Of a stretch of DNA of 44,978 bases, positions 587-36,392 are shown piece by piece (within the stretch, counting starts at the first letter, position 1; each line of letters starts with the position of its first letter). The notes beneath the pieces were generated by a model. That model saw nothing but the letters and a program-made list of their open reading frames with translations, was not told the origin of the DNA and did not search any database. This DNA is from Capniomyces stellatus (Eukaryota > Kickxellomycota > Harpellomycetes > Harpellales > Legeriomycetaceae). The position numbers and the translations under genes are program-made. Location of the stretch: the NCBI GenBank assembly GCA_001661515.1, contig LUVW01000052.1, positions 43,976 to 88,953 on the forward strand, read 5' to 3'.

Positions 587-2020
587 TTTTTTTTTTAAAT
601 ATGCTACTACCTGTAGCTTTATTTCTATTACTACATCAATAATAATGTAGCAAGGCATGTAGTCACTTATATTTTAAAATACATTGGCTAAACTAGTGCA
701 GATAAGCCTGGTATTCTTCTATTGATAACATTAGTAAAGCTGTATGTTTATCTTTAGTCAGGAGGATGTAGCTACTGATATTCCTGTGGGTATACGAATT
801 TACTTTTCTAAATATTTTGCAGTACCAACTAATTTGAGTGAATTGAGGTCTGTACAGCATACAAGCATTGTTAAATATGTATCTACTACAGCATTTAATA
901 GCTGTCTGTGTGTATATTTGGTAAATACTGTTGATTGCTTTGGAATGAGTCAATCAACACTGGAGCAATTCCACAAAAATACATAAAAAAAAGCCCAAAA
1001 ACAAGGTGTCAGTTTAAAACAGATTCAGAGGGTTCGGCTTTTAATTGGGAAATTCGAAAATGAAATGATTGAGACTAGCAGCCAATTAAATTGGCGTGAT
1101 AGAAAAATGTCGAGTGCTTTTGTCGCGAAATGAAAACGAGGTATTTGTAAAAATAAAATAAAAAAGTAAATGAAATGAAGGTAAAGGTTAGGGTTGAAAT
1201 AAATAAAAGTTCAATTTGAAGAAAAGTAACGCGTTATTTAGCATTGGTTAGCCAAAAATTTATAAAATAGTTAGTTAGGGTTATTGTAAAGTCGTGGTGG
1301 TATTTTCGGTAAATTTTATTGTTGATTGCCATAATATCAATAAAAAGGTGAAAATAAAACTTTTTAAAGAGAAAATGTGAAAAGTGAAAATAGGAGAGAA
1401 GGAATCAGGAGAGGTTGTAGTGATTGAAAAGGCTGATTAGAGGGGAGATAATCTGAAAATGCAGGCGTAAGATGAAAGAAAAAAAGAAAAGTAGAAAAGA
1501 ATAGTCAGTAGAAGAATTAGAGTAATAAGTAATGAATGTTGTAGTTAAGATGATTGGGTTATAGGGTCGAATTAATAATTAAAGTAACGTAAAGAAGATA
1601 AGGGAATGAGCTAGGGTTGACAAAAGATAATTAAAAAAGACCAAAAAACAAATAAACAAGTAGAAATAAAAGATAAATAGCTAGGGTTAGGGTTGGTATG
1701 CATTTTGCAAATAAATATATTTCGCAACAAAAAAGAATAACACGTCTAACACGTCTAACAAGAATATTAAAAAAATAGGCCAATAAATAAATAAATAAGC
1801 TCGTTAAACATTGAAATTTAAATTGAAAACATAAACAAAAACAGAACAGACAAAGGACGGTGTTTCACAAGAGAGGATAAAGTGAAAAAGGGCAACAGAC
1901 TAGGATTGTTATAATCAACATACAGAGAGAGGATAAATAATAAAGGAAATCGGTTCAGTGGTTTAAAAAGAGGGAAAGAGAGAGGTATTAGGAACTTGAA
2001 TGTAAAAGGATTAAAAAAAA
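587..2020. other. Intergenic region, promoter side of both flanking genes
   Basis: I see no supportable gene here. The left part (600-980) is the upstream region of the minus-strand bZIP copy. From about 1140 to 2020 the plus strand becomes strongly purine-rich (A/G), which is the leader of the TBF1/TRF-like gene. It contains scattered telomere-like TAGGGTT words, listed separately. Confidence 0.6.
1188..1694 (+). promoter_or_regulatory. Cluster of TTAGGG-type telomeric words upstream of TBF1/TRF-like gene
   Basis: TTAGGGTT occurs at 1188-1195 and 1275-1282, TAGGGTT at 1612-1618, and TAGGGTTAGGGTT at 1682-1694. Fungal Tbf1/TRF-type proteins bind TTAGGG, in yeast also within promoters. Because the next gene encodes such a protein, autoregulation is a natural inference. 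I saw only isolated matches elsewhere in the window. Confidence 0.5.
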
Positions 2021-5000
2021 ATGTCAGGGAACCTAAACACAAAAAGGAGTAAACTGATTCCAGTAAAGTTTAGCGAGATAGACAAGGCCTCGTTGCTATA
2101 TAAACATCTGAAGAAATATGGCATAACAAGTGCGGCACAGGTAGATAAACTTGATGGGAGGTCAATAGAATTTAGAGCGCTAAAGAGGCTGGGATATTTC
2201 CAATCAGGCGAGGAGGAGCCGCTTGAAAAGAGGATAGGAACAGATATGGAGAGCTTGGCCAGTAGTTCGCAGGCGAGTGGCGGGGAGAATTTTACGGAAC
2301 AGAGTTTAGCAGCAAAATTACAGAGAGGTACAGGCTTGCCTGGTGCGGTAAGGGGTGGTAGGGGGGCAGGTCGTAGGGGGCGGGGGAGTAGAAGGGGAGG
2401 TAGAGCTAGTGGATCGTTAGATCGAGAGAGCAAGAGAAGGCAGATGGAAAGCGGTAAACAGGATGGCGAATTTGACAAGGATGAAGAGGAGCCAAGTGAA
2501 AATGCGAGCGCGGTGGAGGTAACTGAAGGCGAAAAGAGGGGTGAGGTGGGGTTGGTGGAGGGGAATCGGGAGGAGGAGGACCGGGAGGAAGAGAATGAAG
2601 AAGGGGGGGAGGAGAGAGTTGAGAAGGAGAGAGTTGAGAAGGAGAGAGTTGAGGAAATGAGAACGCCTAGAAGTCAGAATGGAGAGGGAAACAGATTGAG
2701 AGAAAGTTCAAAAAGGCAGGGGTTGAATCCGGATAGTGGTAGTAGTGGTAGTAGTAGTGTTAGTAGTAGTGGTAGTGTTGGGTTAGGGTTAGGGTTAGGG
2801 AAAGGGAATAAAAGAAGAAGAATGGGGGATGTAGAATTGGGTAAGTTTAGTGGGGATAAAGAAGATGGTGAAGAAGGGAAAAGAGAAGAGGAAGAAAGAG
2901 AGGTGGGTAAAGTAGAAGTAGAGGCAGAGACGGATAGTTTAGAAGGGGATTTTGCATATATGCTGAGAGAGTTTTTTGAAGAGGGGGCGGCAAAGAAAGA
3001 GGATATGGTGGTTAGGGAGAGAAAAGAAAGGAGAGAGTCAGAGAGGACGACACGGATGGAAGAAAAGACAGAAAAGAGGCGTAGAAGGTTCCTGGAGAGG
3101 GATTTGGGATTGTTGGAAAAGTTTGTGGATATGATAACAGAGAGGATAATGGTGATAATAAAGGGGAGTTATAAGACGTCAATGTCGAGATGGGATGAGA
3201 ATATTGAGAAGGACAAGAGATTGGATTGTTTGATTCAGTCATACCACGGTAAGTGATAAATAGATGGATAAATAGATGGATAACGTAATATATGATAATG
3301 ACGAGAGTTGATTTTGGTATTAGGGATTAGAAGGATGATTAGTGGGGACAAGTTTTTGTTAGATCCAGGGATTGTGGAAGATTTGGAGGACAAGAGACAC
3401 AGCCTGACGATATACAACAGCAACTTGATCTGTATGATGGGATTGACGTGTTTCCCAAGGATGTTTTTGCTGCGAGCGGGAGGTAAATGGACGAATGAGT
3501 ATAACGAGGTATCAGAAAAAGTAAACAAAGTATGCATACAGTCGGTGGGTGAGGGTGAGGGGGATAGGGATAGGGATAGGGATAGGGATCGTGAATTTGA
3601 TATGCAGGTGGGCGTAGAGTGGATGAATTATGGAGTGTCGTTATTTTTCATTGAGCCAGTCAAGTACCTGTTTGTTCCAGACAAGGTGCGGCAGGTGGGG
3701 GAGGGAGAGATTGAGGCGAGGGATTTGAATATGATTGACTTGTTTGTGGATATGTTTACGCAGCTGGCGTTGGTGCTGAGAGAAGGAGACATTGATGTGG
3801 GCGAGTTGGGAGATGACGGAAGCAAGGGTGGTAGTGCTCGAGAAGTGATTGAGGGGATGAGCTTGGAAAAAAAGACACAAGACCGGTTTGCCAGGAACAC
3901 GAGATTTTACTTTGAAAACGGGGCCAAGACAGTAGGGTCAATTAAAAATACATCTCTCCAGGCCTACTTTGAGACGATGGCAAAGGAAAGGATGCAAGAC
4001 ATTTTGGACGCCAGAATCCGCTTGGCAAAGGAAACGTTTCCACCAGTGTCACTCAAGCGCAACGTGTCAAAGTTTATTGACATCAACTTGGTAGTTCCGT
4101 TTATCAAGAGATTGGGCCAATTGAAACGAACGAACCAGATGTTGGGCAGTTTAAGAAGAGCCAATCAGGAGCTCGACACCGAAACAACAGTTCTGATGCT
4201 CAAGTATGGCGACCTGAACCACCGGAAGGACTTTGCGGGATTGAAGGGCCAGAAGTTGCCAGGCGGCCGGCAAACAGAAGGGGGTGGAGTGGGGGAATTG
4301 GATTTGTCAGGGGAGTTTAATGATGGGGGCTGTTCAAGTGAAGGAGGTGTGGACCAAAGTTTGCCAGAAAACTTGTCAAACAGCAAGATGAGAGATTCGA
4401 CGCATTTGCGGTTGGCACGTAGAGGAAACAGCAGAGTCAAGGGAGCGAGTGCTGGTATGCCAAGAAACGCGGATAAGGGCAGGATGAAGATCAACGCATC
4501 GATTCCTATTCCAAAAAGGCAGAGCCAGCAAGTCCAAGAAGAGGCGGAAGGGACAAAGCAGAGGGCAGGGTGGATGGGTAATGGGAGGCGGCTGGAGGCG
4601 GCGGAGTTTTATAGTGATGACGATATTGGTTCGGAGGATGGAATTTCGGTTACTGAGGACACCAGTACAGAGTCCGACTCTGGGCACGCAGCGCAGCGTT
4701 TGGCTTCTATCAAGGAAAGACGCAGGGAAAAAAGAGGCGCGCTGGACAAACAGGGCGGCGATAAGGAGGCTAGGGGCACGGCTGGGGGCGTTAGAAACAA
4801 TTTGGTTGTCAGTGTCAACGTGCCCAACCCTAGATTGTCCAATCAAATTGCCCAGAATCAGAATCAGAATCAGAATCAGAAACAGAAGCAGATCCAGGAG
4901 AGTGATGGTGATAGTGGTAATGATCGAGATGGTGAATTCCAAGTAATCACAGAGCTTTCGATAAATGGCCAACCACGGTCCAGGGCGTCAATAGAAAGAA

Positions 5001-5287
5001 TCCGCGCAATTTTATCCACAGTTCGCTACAGCGCTGGGAGAAACGGGCAGTCTTTATCCAAGAAAAACTGGACTGCAGAGGAGATTATCTGTCTTGATGG
5101 GTGTATTGAGCTATACAAGGATTCTAGCTACGCCATGTTTCTGGAGTACCATGGCAGGAATGGCATTTACACCAATGTCTTGGAGGACCGAAACAGTGTC
5201 CAGCTCAAAGATAAAGTCCGAAACATTGTTCGTTTTCTTTCCAGAAACAACATACCTTTGGGTCCATACTCGTTTTGTGCAAGATAG
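2021..5287 (+). CDS. TBF1/TRF-like telomere repeat-binding protein
   Basis: The gene has two exons, 2021-3248 and 3324-5287. The 75-nt intron starts GTAAGT and ends TATTAG; the junction restores the frame (SYHG then IRRMISG). The product is 1063 residues. The C-terminal Myb/telobox domain starts near Trp992 (NWTAEE) and ends with VQLKDKVRN at about 1035-1043. This matches the fungal Tbf1/Taz1 form VQLKDKARN, with Val where Ala or Trp is usual. The middle region around the intron (about 360-560) is helical and probably corresponds to a TRF-homology dimerisation domain, which is inference. Residues 100-310 are charged and disordered (RG-rich, Glu-rich, a Ser/Gly run, then VGLGLGLGKG). A DRDRDRDRDR tract follows in exon 2. 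Expected role: binding TTAGGG DNA at telomeres and perhaps at promoters. The coding strand is G-rich at 5' and C-richer at 3'. It converges on uS4m, 257 bp away. Confidence 0.85.
2783..2800 (+). repeat. Intragenic telomeric repeat (TTAGGG)3
   Basis: Three perfect TTAGGG units, preceded by TTGGG, lie in the reading frame of the telomere-binding protein and encode Leu-Gly repeats. They are on the coding strand. Confidence 0.9.
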
Positions 5288-9365: not shown

Positions 9366-10274
9366 TTAGTCGCGTTTGACAATGTTGATGAGTTTGGGAG
9401 TTGCAATGCAATTCTCATTAGGTTGAATTACGATGGGGGTGTCAAAGATGGTTAGTTTCTTGGTGGGCAAGTTTTTGATGGTTAGTTTTGGATCTTTTAC
9501 GAGTTTACCGTTAACAATGGCCTTTGAGCCAAGAGGTAGTTTCGACACGGTGTTGAATTGGATTATAGAGTTTCTGTAGGAGTTGGAATTGGAGTTGGAA
9601 TTGGAGTTGGAATTGTTGTTGTTGTTAGAGTTGTTGTTGGAATTAGAATTAGAGTTGGAATTGGAATTAGAGTTGGAATTGGAATTGGAATTGGAATTGG
9701 AATTGGAATTGGAATTGGAATTGGAATTGGAATTAGAGTTGGAATTGGAGTTGGAATTGGAAATAGAATCAGAGATAGATATAGAATCAGAGTTGGAGAT
9801 AGAATCAGAATTGGAGATAGAATCAGAATTGGAAATGGAGAGGGAATCTTCGTTTTCGTCGTAACCGTTTTCGTAATTGTGGTTGTAGCAGCCGTTGTAG
9901 CGCAAGAGATCTTTTTTGATTTGTTGGTCTAAAAAGTAGAGTTCGTGTTCTCTGTTTTTGAGGCGGCGATAGGCACGGTACTTTTGGCGGATAAAGAGGG
10001 CGGAGATGGAGGCGAGTATGGCGAGAAACAAGAGAGATCCAAAGGCTACAATAGCGATTGAAGAGGTAGACCAAGGAGCTTGGGCAGGCGAAGGGGGGTC
10101 AGGGCTGGAGGTAGGTGTTCTGTAGCCGCACTCGTATCGGGCACAGGCTTTGCAAGAGTAATTGATGATTCCCCAGACCTGGTCGACTTTTAAGCAGGGT
10201 TTAATGGGTAGTTTTCCGAGGGGGGGGCAGTTTGAAATACAGTTATTTTGATCAAGAATAGGGACAAAGGACAT
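9366..10274 (-). CDS. Opy2-like single-pass membrane protein A, with Ser-Asn repeat tail
   Basis: 302 residues, no signal peptide. The short N-terminal ectodomain has six Cys in a NCPPLG...YSCKACARYEC pattern. A membrane segment follows at about residues 72-95 (IAIVAFGSLLFLAILAS), then a basic juxtamembrane stretch and a long cytosolic tail. The Cys pattern and N-out topology resemble fungal Opy2, the plasma-membrane anchor that recruits Ste50 in osmosensing MAPK signalling. The family link is inference from the pattern. The tail carries a long Ser-Asn dipeptide tract encoded by a hexanucleotide repeat. Conserved short patches shared with the paralog at 25192-25857 are KDLLRYNG, VNGKLV..PKLTIK and PKLINIV. 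The coding strand is pyrimidine-rich. It lies downstream of the chitin synthase gene on the same strand. Confidence 0.7.
   Translation of the reverse strand: MSFVPILDQNNCISNCPPLGKLPIKPCLKVDQVWGIINYSCKACARYECGYRTPTSSPDPPSPAQAPWSTSSIAIVAFGSLLFLAILASISALFIRQKYRAYRRLKNREHELYFLDQQIKKDLLRYNGCYNHNYENGYDENEDSLSISNSDSISNSDSISNSDSISISDSISNSNSNSNSNSNSNSNSNSNSNSNSNSNSNSNSNSNSNSNSNNNSNNNNNSNSNSNSNSNSYRNSIIQFNTVSKLPLGSKAIVNGKLVKDPKLTIKNLPTKKLTIFDTPIVIQPNENCIATPKLINIVKRD
9585..9840 (-). repeat. Hexanucleotide (AATTCC-type) coding repeat for poly Ser-Asn
   Basis: On the plus strand the unit reads GGAATT or GAGTTG. It is imperfect and lacks stops in several frames, which explains the spurious Glu-Leu and Val-Gly-Ile-Gly frames on the other strand. 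Such tracts usually vary in length between strains. Confidence 0.85.
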
Positions 10275-16615: not shown

Positions 16616-17260
16616 ATGAAGGTTTCATTATCGCTAGCCGTTGTATTTTTTACAAATGCCTCTTCAACCAATGCTAATACTCTGGGAATATATAAAACTA
16701 GACCCACTGGCACATTTTCTGCGTCAGCTTCGGGGGCCATTACAGCAGATGTCACATCGAAATTTGGTATAGATAACGCAGATAGTGGCACCATTTATAA
16801 CGCTCAGACGATTAAAATGGGAAAAGTGAATCGCGGCAGCGGGAATAATAGGCATCACCAGAGAGAAGGCACGCAACACTATTCTCGCAAGTATAATGAG
16901 AGGGCCAGCAGTAATGCGAAAGGCAAAAAGTATCGCATAATAAACAAAAGCGAGGACAAGGGAATGGACGAAAATAAAAATGACCAAGACCACACACACC
17001 CTCCACCAAAGCAAAAAAAAAAAAGCAAAACGATAAACGTAAGCGAGGGACATTGGAGCTGGAAGAATAGGATTAGATGGGCGTTTATAAAAGGACTACG
17101 GCATAAGCCAAGAGACCGCCGCGAGTTCAAATTTGAGCTTCTGTACACATATGTGAGAGGATTCAGGTATCGCTGGAATTCCGACTACAGGTTTAGACAC
17201 AGGTTTGATAACGACCATCGGTTCAGAAAGCTATGGCTAGATTACGTAAAAAGCATCTAG
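16616..17260 (+). CDS. Secreted RFR-domain protein A (unknown function)
   Basis: 214 residues, intronless. The N-terminus (MKVSLSLAVVFFTNAS) looks like a signal peptide. A low-complexity hydrophilic middle with His, Lys and Pro runs leads to a compact basic-aromatic C-terminal module at residues 170-214. That module has FRYRWNSDYRFRHR and DHRFRKLWLDYV and no Cys. It aligns without gaps to the last 45 residues of the protein at 21923-23419 (20 identical positions by my count), so it is a real shared domain. I do not recognise it as a known family. It is the first gene of the accessory secreted patch. Confidence 0.75.
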   Translation: MKVSLSLAVVFFTNASSTNANTLGIYKTRPTGTFSASASGAITADVTSKFGIDNADSGTIYNAQTIKMGKVNRGSGNNRHHQREGTQHYSRKYNERASSNAKGKKYRIINKSEDKGMDENKNDQDHTHPPPKQKKKSKTINVSEGHWSWKNRIRWAFIKGLRHKPRDRREFKFELLYTYVRGFRYRWNSDYRFRHRFDNDHRFRKLWLDYVKSI

Positions 17261-21922: not shown

Positions 21923-23419
21923 TTAAAAGTTATTTATAATATCAAACCAATATTTTCTGAATCTGAAATCGAGTTCCCATCTCCTTCTAAATCTGTGGTC
22001 ATAGTTCCATCTTCTCTTAAACTCGGGGATGTAGTTGTAAAGAAATTGGAATCTCCTTCCGTAAAAATTACTTGGTCTGTACCTTATTGTATTCACAAAT
22101 CGCCGGTCAACAACATCATCCAAGTACCATATTCTCCCATTGATGTATTTACTTGGGCGTTTATATGGTTTTGGTCGATATTCTGGCCTCCATTTATTGT
22201 ATGTGAATCCTGGGTCTACACGACCATTATACTTGTGATTGTAGCCAGGTTTGCTGATGTACTTGTCATTCCAACCATTTCTTCCTCTCCCATCACCCCT
22301 TCCATCGCCCTTTCCGTCCCACTTTCCATTCCACTTTCCATCCTCTCTACCGTCACCCTTTCCATCGCCCTTCCCATCACCCTTCCCGTCACCTTTGCCA
22401 TCACCCTTTCCATCACCCTTCCCATCACCTCTGCCATCACCTTTGCCATCACCCTTCCCATCACCCTTCCCATCACCTCTGCCATCACCTCTGCCATCAC
22501 CTCTGCCATCACCTCTGCCATCACCTCTGCCATCACCTCTGCCATCACCTCTGCCATCCCCTCTACCGTCACCCTTTCCATCACCTCTGCCATCGCCCTT
22601 TCCATCCCCTCTACCGTCACCCTTCCCACCTCCTCTCCCATTATTTGTTCCATTACCATCACTATTTCCGGTAATGTTGCCTTCTCTGTTTCGGTCATCA
22701 TTGTTTAAACCACCGCTGCCATTTTGATCACCACCACGACTTTGGCCACCTTTGTCACCAAACCCGCTACCCCATTTTGGTAAATCGGCTGGCTTATCAG
22801 CTGCATCACTAACCCTGTTTGTGAGAACATTGATGTCTTGGTTGTCCAATGGTTCATTTTCACTTATGTTTTTGTTGGAGACAAACCTGTTCCCACTCTC
22901 AACTGAGGCATCATTGTTGTTAGGAACCAAATCTGTTTCTGGTACAGATGGGTTAGTACCTGGTACAGCTATATTTGGACTGGCCATTCCAGAATTGTCA
23001 TCTTGGTTGGCGTTGGCCTCAGGATCCTGCGGTGGCTCCGGGATTGGTGGCGCGTTAGCACTCGCCTCTTTGTTGATATCTGTGGCTCCAGTATCTTGTG
23101 GAAGGTTGAAATTTAAGCTTCTTGCGCCAGCAACTCTGTCGTTAGAATATTGTCTGTTTTCTTCTGGCTCGTATTCGCCAGGTCGAAGGTAATCACCATC
23201 CTGGTTGTCTACCCTGTCGTTTTGATAATATCCACGGTAGTAATTATTACTATTATAGCCCATATTTCTATTATTAGAAGCCGAACTAGGAACGTCATCA
23301 AACGCATCGACCGCCACCGGCCTGATATACTGCGAATTGAAATTTTGGTAGTCATCTCTTGGTACTGTGTCTGAAATACACGGCGGTATTAAGCATAACC
23401 CCAGTATTGATAAACGCAT
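21923..23419 (-). CDS. Secreted RFR-domain protein B with RGD/KGD repeat array
   Basis: 498 residues, one exon. The N-terminus ([16 protein letters not shown]) is a short signal peptide. Residues 20-240 are Asn/Asp/Pro-rich and probably disordered. Residues of roughly 255-375 form a tandem array of GDGR/GDGK units, giving about a dozen RGD and a similar number of KGD tripeptides. The last 45 residues are the RFR module ([24 protein letters not shown]) shared with the protein at 16616-17260. RGD and KGD are integrin-recognition tripeptides in animals. In a low-complexity hydrophilic array this may be meaningful or fortuitous. No known family recognised. Probably cell-wall associated or secreted. 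Confidence 0.8.
22285..22640 (-). repeat. Tandem 12-nt coding repeat (GDGR/GDGK)
   Basis: The plus strand reads as repeated CCATCACC-TCTG or CCATCACC-CTTT units. The array is open in other frames, which produces spurious frames on both strands. Confidence 0.9.
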
Positions 23420-25191: not shown

Positions 25192-25857
25192 TCATTGCTC
25201 GTTGATCGGGTTTCTATCAAGGTTGACAATTTTAGGCCTCAGATCGACAGGACTATTGGCGCTATTTAAAAATGTAATTATAGTTGGTGGCTGAGCTGGA
25301 AGCTTGGTCTTTCTTATCCCGGAAGGAGGTCCAAGGTTGGACAAACCTCTGTTGTTATCGCTTTTTATTGTCAGTTTGGCCTCAACAAGATTTCCATTGA
25401 CCACTGATTTTAGTGGGCGTGGGTCACACTCGTATATAGAACATTCATCGTCACTATCAATTGAGCCTATGGTAGACAGTCTTGCGTTCGCTATTGTACC
25501 ATATTCGCTGTATCCGTTATATCTTCGTAGATCCCTTCTAACTTTCTCGTTCAGCACCATTCTATTTCTTATTTGCTCTTTCTTTCTTTTGTATTGTATT
25601 CTCTTTCTATAAACAAGGAATCCCGCCAAAACAATAAATAAGACAACAGATACTGTTACAATTGTGATATTGACCACGCTGTAACCCGTGGTAGCTCCAG
25701 TCTCAATCTTTGTACAGCTATATTTTGCGCAAGCTGTGCATGAATACGGATTTATTGACCAATTCTGGCCTGCGGGACAGAGTTCACTTGGTATTCGCCC
25801 AACAGGTGGACAGTCCTTTATACAGCCGTATTGATCGCGGGCCGGGTTATCCTCCAT
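25192..25857 (-). CDS. Opy2-like single-pass membrane protein B
   Basis: 221 residues, intronless. It has the same architecture as the protein at 9366-10274: no signal peptide, an N-terminal six-Cys module (GCIKDCPPVG, then YSCTACAKYSC), a membrane segment at about residues 57-83 (VVNITIVTVSVVLFIVLAGFLVY), a basic juxtamembrane helix and a cytosolic tail with VRRDLRRYNG, VNGNLVEAKLTIK and PKIVNL. The Ser-Asn expansion of copy A is absent. The Cys spacing and N-out topology suggest the Opy2 family, a MAPK-pathway membrane anchor. This is a pattern-level assignment, not proof. An alternative is a lineage-specific surface receptor family. It is the rightmost gene of the accessory patch. Confidence 0.7.
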   Translation of the reverse strand: MEDNPARDQYGCIKDCPPVGRIPSELCPAGQNWSINPYSCTACAKYSCTKIETGATTGYSVVNITIVTVSVVLFIVLAGFLVYRKRIQYKRKKEQIRNRMVLNEKVRRDLRRYNGYSEYGTIANARLSTIGSIDSDDECSIYECDPRPLKSVVNGNLVEAKLTIKSDNNRGLSNLGPPSGIRKTKLPAQPPTIITFLNSANSPVDLRPKIVNLDRNPINEQ

Positions 25858-30767: not shown

Positions 30768-31627
30768 ATAAAACAAAGATAAATTGATAATGAATAGAAC
30801 TAATCGATATAGAAGCAATAAATGATAAAAGAACAGAAAAAGATGGGCAAAAAACCTGAAACAAAGGCAATAAAAAGAGACAGTTGAAAGCAAGTAATTA
30901 ATTGGTCTAGACCCAAAGCAAAAATAATGTAATAATTTGTAATGTTTGGTGAGTATAATGAAATACTGCGAAACTAAAAAACGAATAGTGAGCAATAATG
31001 ATGGAAGTTTTAAAGGAAAAAAAGAAAGAAGAAAAGTAAATATAGAAAAAAGGTAAAAGAGAAAAAAGTATAAATATAAAATGGTGGAACCAAGTTGGAA
31101 GAAAGAAATTGTACAAAAAGAATTCATATCAGTAGTATTTAACTAGTAATAAATAAAAATAAAGTCTTCAAGAGATAGAGTTTTTATATATTAGAACATA
31201 TTAAAAAGTAAATATTTAAGAATATAGTATACAGTTTAGTAGAAACGGTACTATAGTAACAATAGCATAGGATTCAAGCCTTTATATTTTTAAAACAACT
31301 AACCCAACTTTTACAAACATTCGCCAAGATGGTTGCCTCAGTTTAAAATAATTTTAAAAAAAAAAAATTAAAAGATGATTCGAAAAATACGTCCTATGGT
31401 TCTTGTAACCCATGGTCAAAGCAATGCAATTGTTTTGACTACTGGATAGTGCACTTACCATATGGATTAGTTTTTGAGTCGTCATTTTGTATATGAATAT
31501 ATCACAACTAACTAATCACAGAAATAAGCAACTCCAAGTTTTTTTTTTTACGTATAGTAAAGAGAATTTATTGTAAAGAATAGATAGATTAATAAGAAAA
31601 TAAGAAACATTCCGGAAAAAAAAAAAG
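28913..31627. other. Intergenic region left of the complete bZIP gene
   Basis: No supportable gene. 30650-31620 is A/G-rich on the plus strand and includes a poly-A run at 30735-30765. G runs occur at 30295-30304 and 30570-30579. Short upstream frames starting at 31329, 31375 and 31493 precede the bZIP start, and a branch-like ACTAACTAATCACAG near 31510 could end a leader intron. Confidence 0.5.
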
Positions 31628-32213
31628 AAAGACAACACACAACAAACAGCAACAACTAACACGACAAACCGAAACCTAAAGAATGAATCAGGATCAAGTA
31701 GACTATGTAGTGTTTACACTATGGAAGGCGCTAGGAAAGCTGAGCCAAGACATGCAAGAAAAGAGGGTGGAGCAGCCAAGCATGGGATGTATGAGTGGAG
31801 TGGATGGGCTGGGAAGGTTGGGGGGAGTGTTGGAAGCACTGGGTGGAGTCAATAACAGCAGTTTGTTTTCGTCATTGGAACAAACAGCAGCCCAAACAAT
31901 ACAGCAGCCACAGCCACGATCACAGCCACAATCACAGCCACAATCACAGCCACAAATGGAAATCCCATGCAGACGGGTGTTCTCACAGACACCGCCAGCA
32001 GCCATGAGCTTTTCAATGTCGCCAGTTGGATCAGACTTTTCGCCTTTAGAAGCAAGCCTACACACACCACCATTCAACGACATGGACATGTTTAGCAAGT
32101 CGGACTACTTTGGACAGAGCATGTCAAACCACCTGTTCAGTGACGCCTCGTTGGAGTCGCTGGTAGACAATGTTTTGACAGTTCCAAACCAAAAGATATC
32201 CACCAACATGTCA
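31628..32213. repeat. Right arm of perfect inverted repeat (bZIP 5' end)
   Basis: The reverse complement of 1-586. It includes 55 nt of leader and the first 531 nt of coding sequence. The right limit visible here is set only by the window edge on the other side. Confidence 0.9.
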
Positions 32214-34868: not shown

Positions 34869-36392
34869 CATCAGGTATTACAAAGAATGAGCAAGAGAGG
34901 GGTAGACAATTACGTTATAAATTGTCGGCGTAATTGACAATGGCGATTTGTATTGGCACAAAGCAAAAAACCGCAGGAGTTTACAGAACAAAGCAGAGCG
35001 AAACAGAACAAAGCAGAAAAATATTTTGCTCTGAAAAAGGCAAGAGCCGACAATTAATTTGGCGATGGTTTTTGTTTTGCCATCATTTTCACGCTTGTTT
35101 TGTTTTTATTGCTTGATTTGTTTTATACCATTTGTAATTTAGGTTGATAAAGCAATCTATTTATTCCATACTAATATTTATTTCATACTTTAATAGTTAT
35201 TTATTTACTTCACATTATAATATTTATTCATTTCATACTCTATAATTTATTTCATACTCTATAATTTATTCCATACTAATATTTATTTCATACTTTATAA
35301 TTTATTTATTTCATACAACATAAACTATTTTGGTGCATCTTTTACATTAGATTGTAATTTATAAACTGCTTTGTTTGCTTGCAAATATTGCAATTAGCAA
35401 AAGCAGGAATAGGGTAGAATAGAATAGAAAGTATAGAATAAAGACAAAAACAAAAACAGAAAGGCATTATTTTCATCTGATTTTTCGACAATATTTTTTT
35501 CATCAATTGTTTTTTTACATAGTATTTTTGGGATTATTGCCGTGTCATTGTCATTATATTATCGTTTTATCTCTTTATCGTTTTATTTCTGCAAGCAAAG
35601 TTTGACTTGCATTTTGTTTCGGTTTGCGAAAAAACAAAAGAAAAAAAAGAAAGAAAAAAAAAGAAAAAGCGGGCTGAATAAAATCAAAATCCTTTAATAA
35701 AAGTTATCGGAATTGACCCAACAGATTCTTTGGTTTTTAGCTTTCGACTTTTGTTTCTAATCTTTAATTTATTCTTATTTTATTTTATTTTTTTCGCTTT
35801 TGTTTAGTCGGTTTAGGATTAGTAGAAATAGCGAAGGGAATAAATAACAGCAATACAATTATAGCTACAGAAACAATTCATTAATAGCAACATCAAAAGC
35901 AACAGCAGAGAATAATAGTCATAGTATACAATTCAATTTTTATTTCAATTTCAATTTCAATTATATTTATATTTTATTTTTGTTTTATTTTTTTCGCTGC
36001 TGTTTTATGCTTAGCCAATACATTTCTCCAACGTCCTTCCGTCATTTTCAACACCAAAATATTTTCACCCAAACCCGCCAAATAAAAACCCTGGCCAACA
36101 GTTTTTCAGTTTTACAGTTTTTTATACGTACTTTCTGTTGTCAAAGTTGCCGAGTGAAAGCAGAGGAAAGAACAGAATAGCAAAGTTCAACTGAACAGAA
36201 CAAAATTCAGCTGAATTGGGGTTGGCGAAAAAAAAGAAAGGGGATAGGAAAAAAAAAAGGCAAAATCGATTATATATATTTTTGCAGTAGGGAATTAGTA
36301 ATAGTAAAAGTACCAACAGAACAGTGCCAAAAAAAAGGCGACGTGTAATACTGGCGAATAAAACCGTAGCTGGCAATAAACAATTATTAGCC

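What the first reader, a model, noticed from the sequence alone, without database searches (positions are those of the whole stretch)
1188..2800. Telomere-binding-protein gene carries TTAGGG repeats in its own promoter and coding region
Seen: (TTAGGG)3 in frame at 2783-2800 and five TAGGGTT words between 1188 and 1694, directly upstream of and within a gene whose product has a Tbf1/TRF telobox (VQLKDKVRN). Known: Tbf1/TRF-type proteins bind TTAGGG, and yeast Tbf1 also binds promoters. Inference: the protein binds its own gene, giving a feedback loop that could sense free versus telomere-bound protein, so telomere length could set its own binder's expression. The intragenic block might act as a roadblock or an expression sensor.
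Basis: partly seen in the sequence, partly recalled or inferred. Interest (0 to 1): 0.75.

Follow-up and report, generated by a model that had tools for sequence, protein, structure and literature searches.

The report
Telomere-protein gene carrying telomere-like words
In a fungus from an insect-gut lineage, the gene for what looks like its telomere-coating protein has several copies of the telomere word TTAGGG upstream of it and one short block inside it, which suggests, but does not show, that the protein regulates its own gene, as its yeast cousin probably does.

Summary
The DNA observation is real. Five TAGGGTT words lie 327-832 bp upstream of a two-exon gene with a C-terminal Tbf1/TRF-type telobox, and (TTAGGG)3 is in frame in exon 1. 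The genome is a Harpellales fungus, very probably Capniomyces stellatus, with one TTAGGG telomere-type array. The upstream cluster is unlikely to be chance: 0 of 1000 local shuffles reach five, and 0 of 10 other window genes or ORFs has one upstream. Two of the 26 listed non-telomeric TAGGGTTAGGGTT places in 24.5 Mb lie in this locus. The intragenic block is weak evidence: three of the five other non-telomeric (TTAGGG)3 places encode the same Gly-Leu tract in other long ORFs. Best reading: autoregulation. S. cerevisiae Tbf1 is already reported to bind its own promoter (PMC2834713), so this is a new member of a known kind. What is unusual is that the upstream word equals the telomere repeat, so titration by telomeres is physically possible; nothing here tests it. 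No orthologous DNA was available, and a TRFH domain was not detected.

The parts
1188..1195 (+). upstream word 1, TTAGGGTT
1275..1282 (+). upstream word 2, TTAGGGTT
1612..1618 (+). upstream word 3, TAGGGTT (preceded by GC)
1682..1694 (+). upstream words 4 and 5, TAGGGTTAGGGTT; bases 1683-1695 match the first 13 of the S. pombe histone box AGGGTTAGGGTT(t/g)tgat bound by Teb1
   Evidence: histone box from PMC4839565 passages
1562..1567 (+). degenerate word TAGGGT followed by C, not counted among the five
2021..3248 (+). exon 1 of the TBF1/TRF-like gene, low complexity, G- and purine-rich
2783..2800 (+). (TTAGGG)3, in frame, Leu-Gly three times
3249..3323 (+). putative spliceosomal intron GTAAGT...TTAG (one of eight frame-keeping GT/AG pairs listed; chosen for its donor)
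3324..5287 (+). exon 2; whole product 1063 aa
5066..5248 (+). C-terminal Myb/telobox (residues 28-88 of the translation of 4985-5284), with VQLKDKVRN
   Evidence: phmmer to S. pombe trf1 8ynu E 8.6e-8 and S. cerevisiae TBF1 8x6d E 8.7e-5

Best explanation
The gene encodes the fungus's TRF/Tbf1-type TTAGGG-binding protein, and the five TAGGGTT words upstream are its own binding sites, so the protein regulates its own transcription. Shown: an open gene with a telobox, the word cluster, a TTAGGG array in the genome. Inferred: the splice, that the protein binds telomeres and these words, and that the effect is negative (excess free protein lowers its own synthesis). The in-frame (TTAGGG)3 is most simply a Gly-Leu-coding microsatellite, which may be an extra accidental binding site.
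For: Telobox match to the S. pombe and S. cerevisiae Tbf1-type domains. No second telobox relative found in the genome with exon 2 or with the telobox alone (two and one candidates scored). Telomere-type array of about 93 TTAGGG units. Upstream cluster beyond local shuffles, first-ranked recurring 7-mer, 0 of 10 other window genes or ORFs with a word in 1424 bp upstream. For pairs with a gap of 62-92, 15 non-telomeric rows are listed; only this locus and two GGGTT-microsatellite places (C16, C27) have more than one. Two of 26 listed non-telomeric TAGGGTTAGGGTT places are in this locus, P about 1.2e-5 under uniform placement. Precedent: S. cerevisiae Tbf1 occupies its own promoter and needs clustered TTAGGG without fixed spacing or orientation (PMC2834713). 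In Ustilago, whose telomeres are TTAGGG, the Tbf1-like Trf2 is an essential telomere protector (PMC7952879 passages).
Against: No binding data and no orthologous DNA (searches found no relatives). In C. albicans Tbf1 binding to its own promoter was not seen, so the trait is not general. The region is strongly G-skewed (GC skew up to 0.56 upstream, 0.81 in exon 1), which favours G-rich words on this strand, although trinucleotide shuffles allow for that. The words lie 327-832 bp from the ATG. No TRFH domain was detected. Genome-wide, TAGGGTT is rarer than its reversal (2258 against 4683), TAGGGTTAGGGTT outside the array is no more frequent than its reversal (38 listed rows against 38), and pairs with a gap of 62-92 are fewer (15 listed against 27). 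Within the gene body TTAGGG is not enriched once close copies are merged, while reversed GGGATT is.
Confidence: 0.55

Rival explanations
1. Coincidence favoured by sequence make-up: a purine-rich, G-skewed, slippage-prone region makes TAGGGTT-like words and Gly-Leu hexamer runs without any selection for protein binding.
For: GC skew 0.3-0.8 from about 1000 to 3500; other hexamer runs in the same gene, (GGGATA) at 3561-3589 and (CAGAAT) at 4853-4881; reversed GGGATT is also over-represented in the gene body; three of five other non-telomeric (TTAGGG)3 places encode Gly-Leu tracts in long ORFs, one lies in a long ORF read as Asn-Pro, one in no ORF of 100 aa; 38 listed non-telomeric TAGGGTTAGGGTT rows against 38 for the reversed word.
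Against: Local trinucleotide shuffles never reach five upstream words; the upstream words are 6 to 336 bp apart, not one tandem run; an equally skewed upstream region (chitin synthase, skew 0.57) has none.
Confidence: 0.27
2. The words are sites of a broader telobox regulon, bound by this or another Myb protein, as S. pombe Teb1 binds the histone box, and the gene is just one target; or they lie in a transcribed 5' leader and act there.
For: The 1683-1695 site matches the S. pombe histone box; 41 Myb matches in the genome; the purine and G skew begins near 1000, about 1 kb before the ATG, which would fit a long leader.
Against: No TAGGGTT in the RPS6 locus (L051), none nearer than about 1.2 kb at RPL3 (L062) and none at a second, partial L3-family match (L063); one of three U3 gene copies has a word about 250 bp upstream. 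This sample is small. No other telobox relative was found.
Confidence: 0.13
3. Telomere-length sensor: free protein not held by telomeres represses its gene through these words, so the telomere repeat pool sets the expression of its binder.
For: Upstream word and telomere repeat are the same sequence here, unlike in S. cerevisiae, where telomere sequence has diverged (PMC7952879 passages); only one telobox gene was found.
Against: No measurement; only one telomere array is assembled, so the number of telomeric sites is unknown; autoregulation alone needs no telomere input.
Confidence: 0.1

Closest known systems
S. cerevisiae TBF1 and its probable autoregulation (PMC2834713)
   Same: Tbf1-type telobox; Tbf1 found at its own promoter; clustered TTAGGG is the bound motif, no fixed spacing needed
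   Different: S. cerevisiae telomeres are not TTAGGG repeats; here they appear to be. Binding is shown there and only inferred here
Ustilago maydis Trf2/Tbf1 (PMC7952879)
   Same: TRF/Tbf1-type protein in a fungus with TTAGGG telomeres
   Different: Essential telomere role shown there; the passages I read mention no self-regulation
S. pombe Teb1 and the histone box AGGGTTAGGGTT (PMC4839565)
   Same: Telomere-repeat-type Myb protein used as a promoter factor through two tandem TTAGGG; bases 1683-1695 have the same 13-base core
   Different: Teb1 is of the Tay1 type; the reported targets in the passages read are canonical histone promoters
S. cerevisiae Rap1 autoregulation (PMC2834713)
   Same: Telomere-binding factor that binds its own promoter
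   Different: Different protein and different telomere sequence

Membership tests
Tbf1/TRF proteins | C-terminal Myb/telobox with a VDLKDKWRN-type motif (motif recalled) | tested here: met
   VQLKDKVRN; E 8.6e-8 to S. pombe trf1 and 8.7e-5 to S. cerevisiae TBF1. Pfam gave no significant family for the telobox (best E 0.19, an unrelated family)
Tbf1/TRF proteins | TRFH dimerisation domain N-terminal of the telobox | tested here: inconclusive
   No Pfam or PDB match for a 378-residue piece spliced across the intron, nor for exon 1 in the PDB; no alignment available for a fold
Tbf1/TRF proteins | binds double-stranded TTAGGG | not testable with these tools
   needs EMSA; a single-sequence model of the telobox had mean pLDDT 44.3 and was not used
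autoregulated telomere-binding factor gene | binding words enriched upstream of its own gene | tested here: met
autoregulated telomere-binding factor gene | occupancy of own promoter and dependence of expression on it | not testable with these tools
   needs ChIP and mutants
Tay1/Teb1 | two consecutive Myb motifs near the N-terminus (PMC7952879) | tested here: inconclusive
   only one Myb stretch, at the C-terminus, is seen, and exon 1 matches nothing in Pfam or the PDB; but Pfam also misses the telobox, so these tests are not sensitive

The most novel reading that the evidence does not exclude
In a fungus whose telomeres are TTAGGG, the gene of its single TRF/Tbf1-type protein carries the telomere repeat as its own operator, so telomeres and the promoter compete for one protein pool and total telomere length sets the expression of the telomere coat; the in-frame block adds a second, intragenic brake.
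Probability: 0.1. Interest if true: 0.78.

Novelty: new member of a known kind. Interest (0 to 1): 0.42.

Why it matters
How cells match the amount of telomere-coating protein to the amount of telomere DNA is, to my knowledge, an open question. A self-regulated TRF/Tbf1-type gene in which the operator word and the telomere repeat are the same sequence would allow a direct test of titration. It would also suggest that Tbf1 autoregulation occurs outside the budding yeasts, in a culturable early-diverging fungus.

Tried and rejected
Orthologs: two protein searches with exon 2 (whole: 7991 candidates scored; telobox region: 43 candidates) returned nothing at E 0.001, although fungal proteins are in that database. 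The first may have been swamped by low-complexity words (my guess). So conservation of the words and of the Leu-Gly tract is untested.

Fold: a single-sequence model of the telobox had mean pLDDT 44.3, so no fold search was made.

Regulon: RPS6, RPL3 (and a second partial L3 match) and three U3 loci gave no clear pattern. TAGGGTT pairs with a gap of 0-30 (52 rows listed before the telomeric array; control 84) look mostly like GGGTT-type microsatellites and were not taken as regulatory evidence; six of these places were fetched and only their ORFs and words were listed. A partial telomerase match was found, but its upstream DNA could not be read.

Rejected: that the in-frame block is by itself special.

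Whole-genome place lists are capped near 100 rows. In one search one further forward row, and possibly some reverse rows, lie beyond the 38 non-telomeric rows listed; the P value uses the 26 listed places.

Full report
What was checked. The five TAGGGTT words (starts 1189, 1276, 1612, 1682, 1688, all +) and the in-frame (TTAGGG)3 at 2783-2800 are present as described. The window as a whole is poor in TTAGGG (16 against a mean of 24.07 in shuffles), yet eight of the 16 fall in 1188-3325.

Where it is. The window is G000:C48:43976-88953 of a 24,510,316-base genome in 59 contigs. Its chitin synthase is 82% identical to Zancudomyces culisetae and 78-80% to Smittium and Furculomyces proteins (the top-scoring row there is an Entrophospora entry at 58% identity), so this is a Harpellales gut fungus. 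Size and GC fit Capniomyces stellatus (24.8 Mb, GC 37.8%, 72 scaffolds; PMC5954228 passages; PMC4974312 whole text; window GC 38.7%). The contig count differs (59 against 72), so the species name is an inference.

The gene. Exon 1 2021-3248, intron 3249-3323 and exon 2 3324-5287 give 1063 residues; the splice pair is one of eight listed that keep the frame and was chosen for its GTAAGT donor. The C-terminal 100 residues match the telobox of S. pombe trf1 (E 8.6e-8) and S. cerevisiae TBF1 (E 8.7e-5). No significant Pfam family was found for either exon or for the spliced middle, and no PDB match for the middle or for exon 1, so a TRFH domain is not shown. Searches of the genome with exon 2 and with the telobox found only this gene; they scored two candidates and one, so a diverged second copy is not excluded. 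The general Myb family has 41 matches.

The telomere. One array of about 93 TTAGGG units is in the genome; its sequence starts right after an N and runs into degenerate repeats and AT-rich DNA, as a chromosome end would. None of the 18 scaffold ends fetched carries two or more tandem units; four of them read N at the outer edge, two of these throughout. The telomere assignment therefore rests on one array.

Is the upstream cluster more than chance? Local shuffles of 597-2020 that keep dinucleotides or trinucleotides give means of 0.16 and 0.26 and never reach five in 1000 each. Among 7-mers found in at least three separate places, TAGGGTT ranks first (P 1.1e-4 for 597-2020, 1.9e-4 for 1020-2020); as 6-mers, TAGGGT is third and first in these two regions. 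Its genome rate, about 93 telomeric copies removed, is 0.088 per kb, and about 0.03 clusters of four separate words in 506 bp are expected in the genome if words fall at random. Of 10 other genes or ORFs of the window, none has a TAGGGTT on either strand within 1424 bp upstream; for eIF3i the position taken is an exon, not a proven start. For pairs with a gap of 62-92 bases, 15 non-telomeric rows are listed against 27 for the reversed control; only C16, C27 (GGGTT-type microsatellites) and this locus have more than one pair in one place. The double word TAGGGTTAGGGTT has 38 listed non-telomeric rows in 26 places against 38 rows for its reversed control; two of the 26 places are in this locus, 1102 bp apart. 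Uniform placement gives P about 1.2e-5 for two in 597-5287 and 0.03 expected such close pairs in the genome. This assumes uniform placement, which skewed and repeat-rich genes break.

The intragenic block. Six non-telomeric places carry (TTAGGG)3. Of the five others, C15, C38 and C45 encode Gly-Leu tracts in long ORFs (not annotated here), C27 lies in a long ORF read as Asn-Pro, and C3 lies in no ORF of 100 residues. The same gene has (GGGATA) and (CAGAAT) hexamer runs, and 24 hexamer runs of 21 bases or more, of 20 kinds, occur in 196 kb of window and fetched sequence with the telomere array left out. Counting close copies once, TTAGGG is not enriched in the gene body, whereas the reversed control GGGATT is. 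So the block alone is ordinary; only its company with the upstream words is unusual.

Skew. The + strand is purine- and G-rich from about 1000 to 5000. This can explain why all words point the same way and may mean a long transcribed leader. Similar skew upstream of chitin synthase (0.57) comes with no TAGGGTT.

Mechanism. Most likely the protein binds its own upstream words and adjusts its own synthesis. Precedent: ChIP on tiling arrays found S. cerevisiae Tbf1 at its own promoter ('probable auto-regulation'), not so in C. albicans, with clustered TTAGGG as the required motif in S. cerevisiae (PMC2834713, passages and section 9). Bases 1683-1695 have the core of the S. pombe histone box bound by Teb1 (PMC4839565 passages). 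In Ustilago, a fungus with TTAGGG telomeres, the Tbf1-like Trf2 protects telomeres (PMC7952879 passages). This makes competition between telomeres and promoter possible here in a way it is not in S. cerevisiae; it is untested.

Limits. No orthologous DNA, no transcript data, no binding data. The ribosomal-protein and U3 sample (RPS6, RPL3 with a second partial L3 match, three U3 copies) is too small to describe a regulon. Papers holding both Harpellales and telomer-: two, neither on telomere proteins in the passages read.

Noticed in passing
1-596 and 31617-32213: 99.8% identical inverted copies of the 5' part of a bZIP gene; the left copy starts at a run of N and ends at a poly-T. Either an assembly duplicate or a real inverted duplication.
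   Followed up: partly
35158-35330: AT-rich repeats with a TATTTATTTCATACTTTATA-type unit that resemble by eye the AT-rich DNA next to the telomere array in L032.
   Followed up: no
16616-17260 (+) and 21923-23419 (-): Two predicted proteins with signal-like N-termini share an RFRKxW-type C-terminal segment (read by eye), perhaps a secreted family.
   Followed up: no
9366-10274 (-) and 25192-25857 (-): Two small proteins with the same Cys-rich N-terminus (CPP ... YSCxACAxYxC, read by eye); the first has a long Ser-Asn repeat.
   Followed up: no
3320-3325: A TTAGGG word spans the putative 3' splice site of the gene's intron.
   Followed up: no
L032 (G000:C58): The telomere array is joined at its outer side to sequence that looks like a retroelement gag zinc knuckle (my reading of the letters), probably a scaffolding error.
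   Followed up: no
L059-L061: Three U3 snoRNA matches in the genome; one has TAGGGTT about 250 bp upstream.
   Followed up: partly
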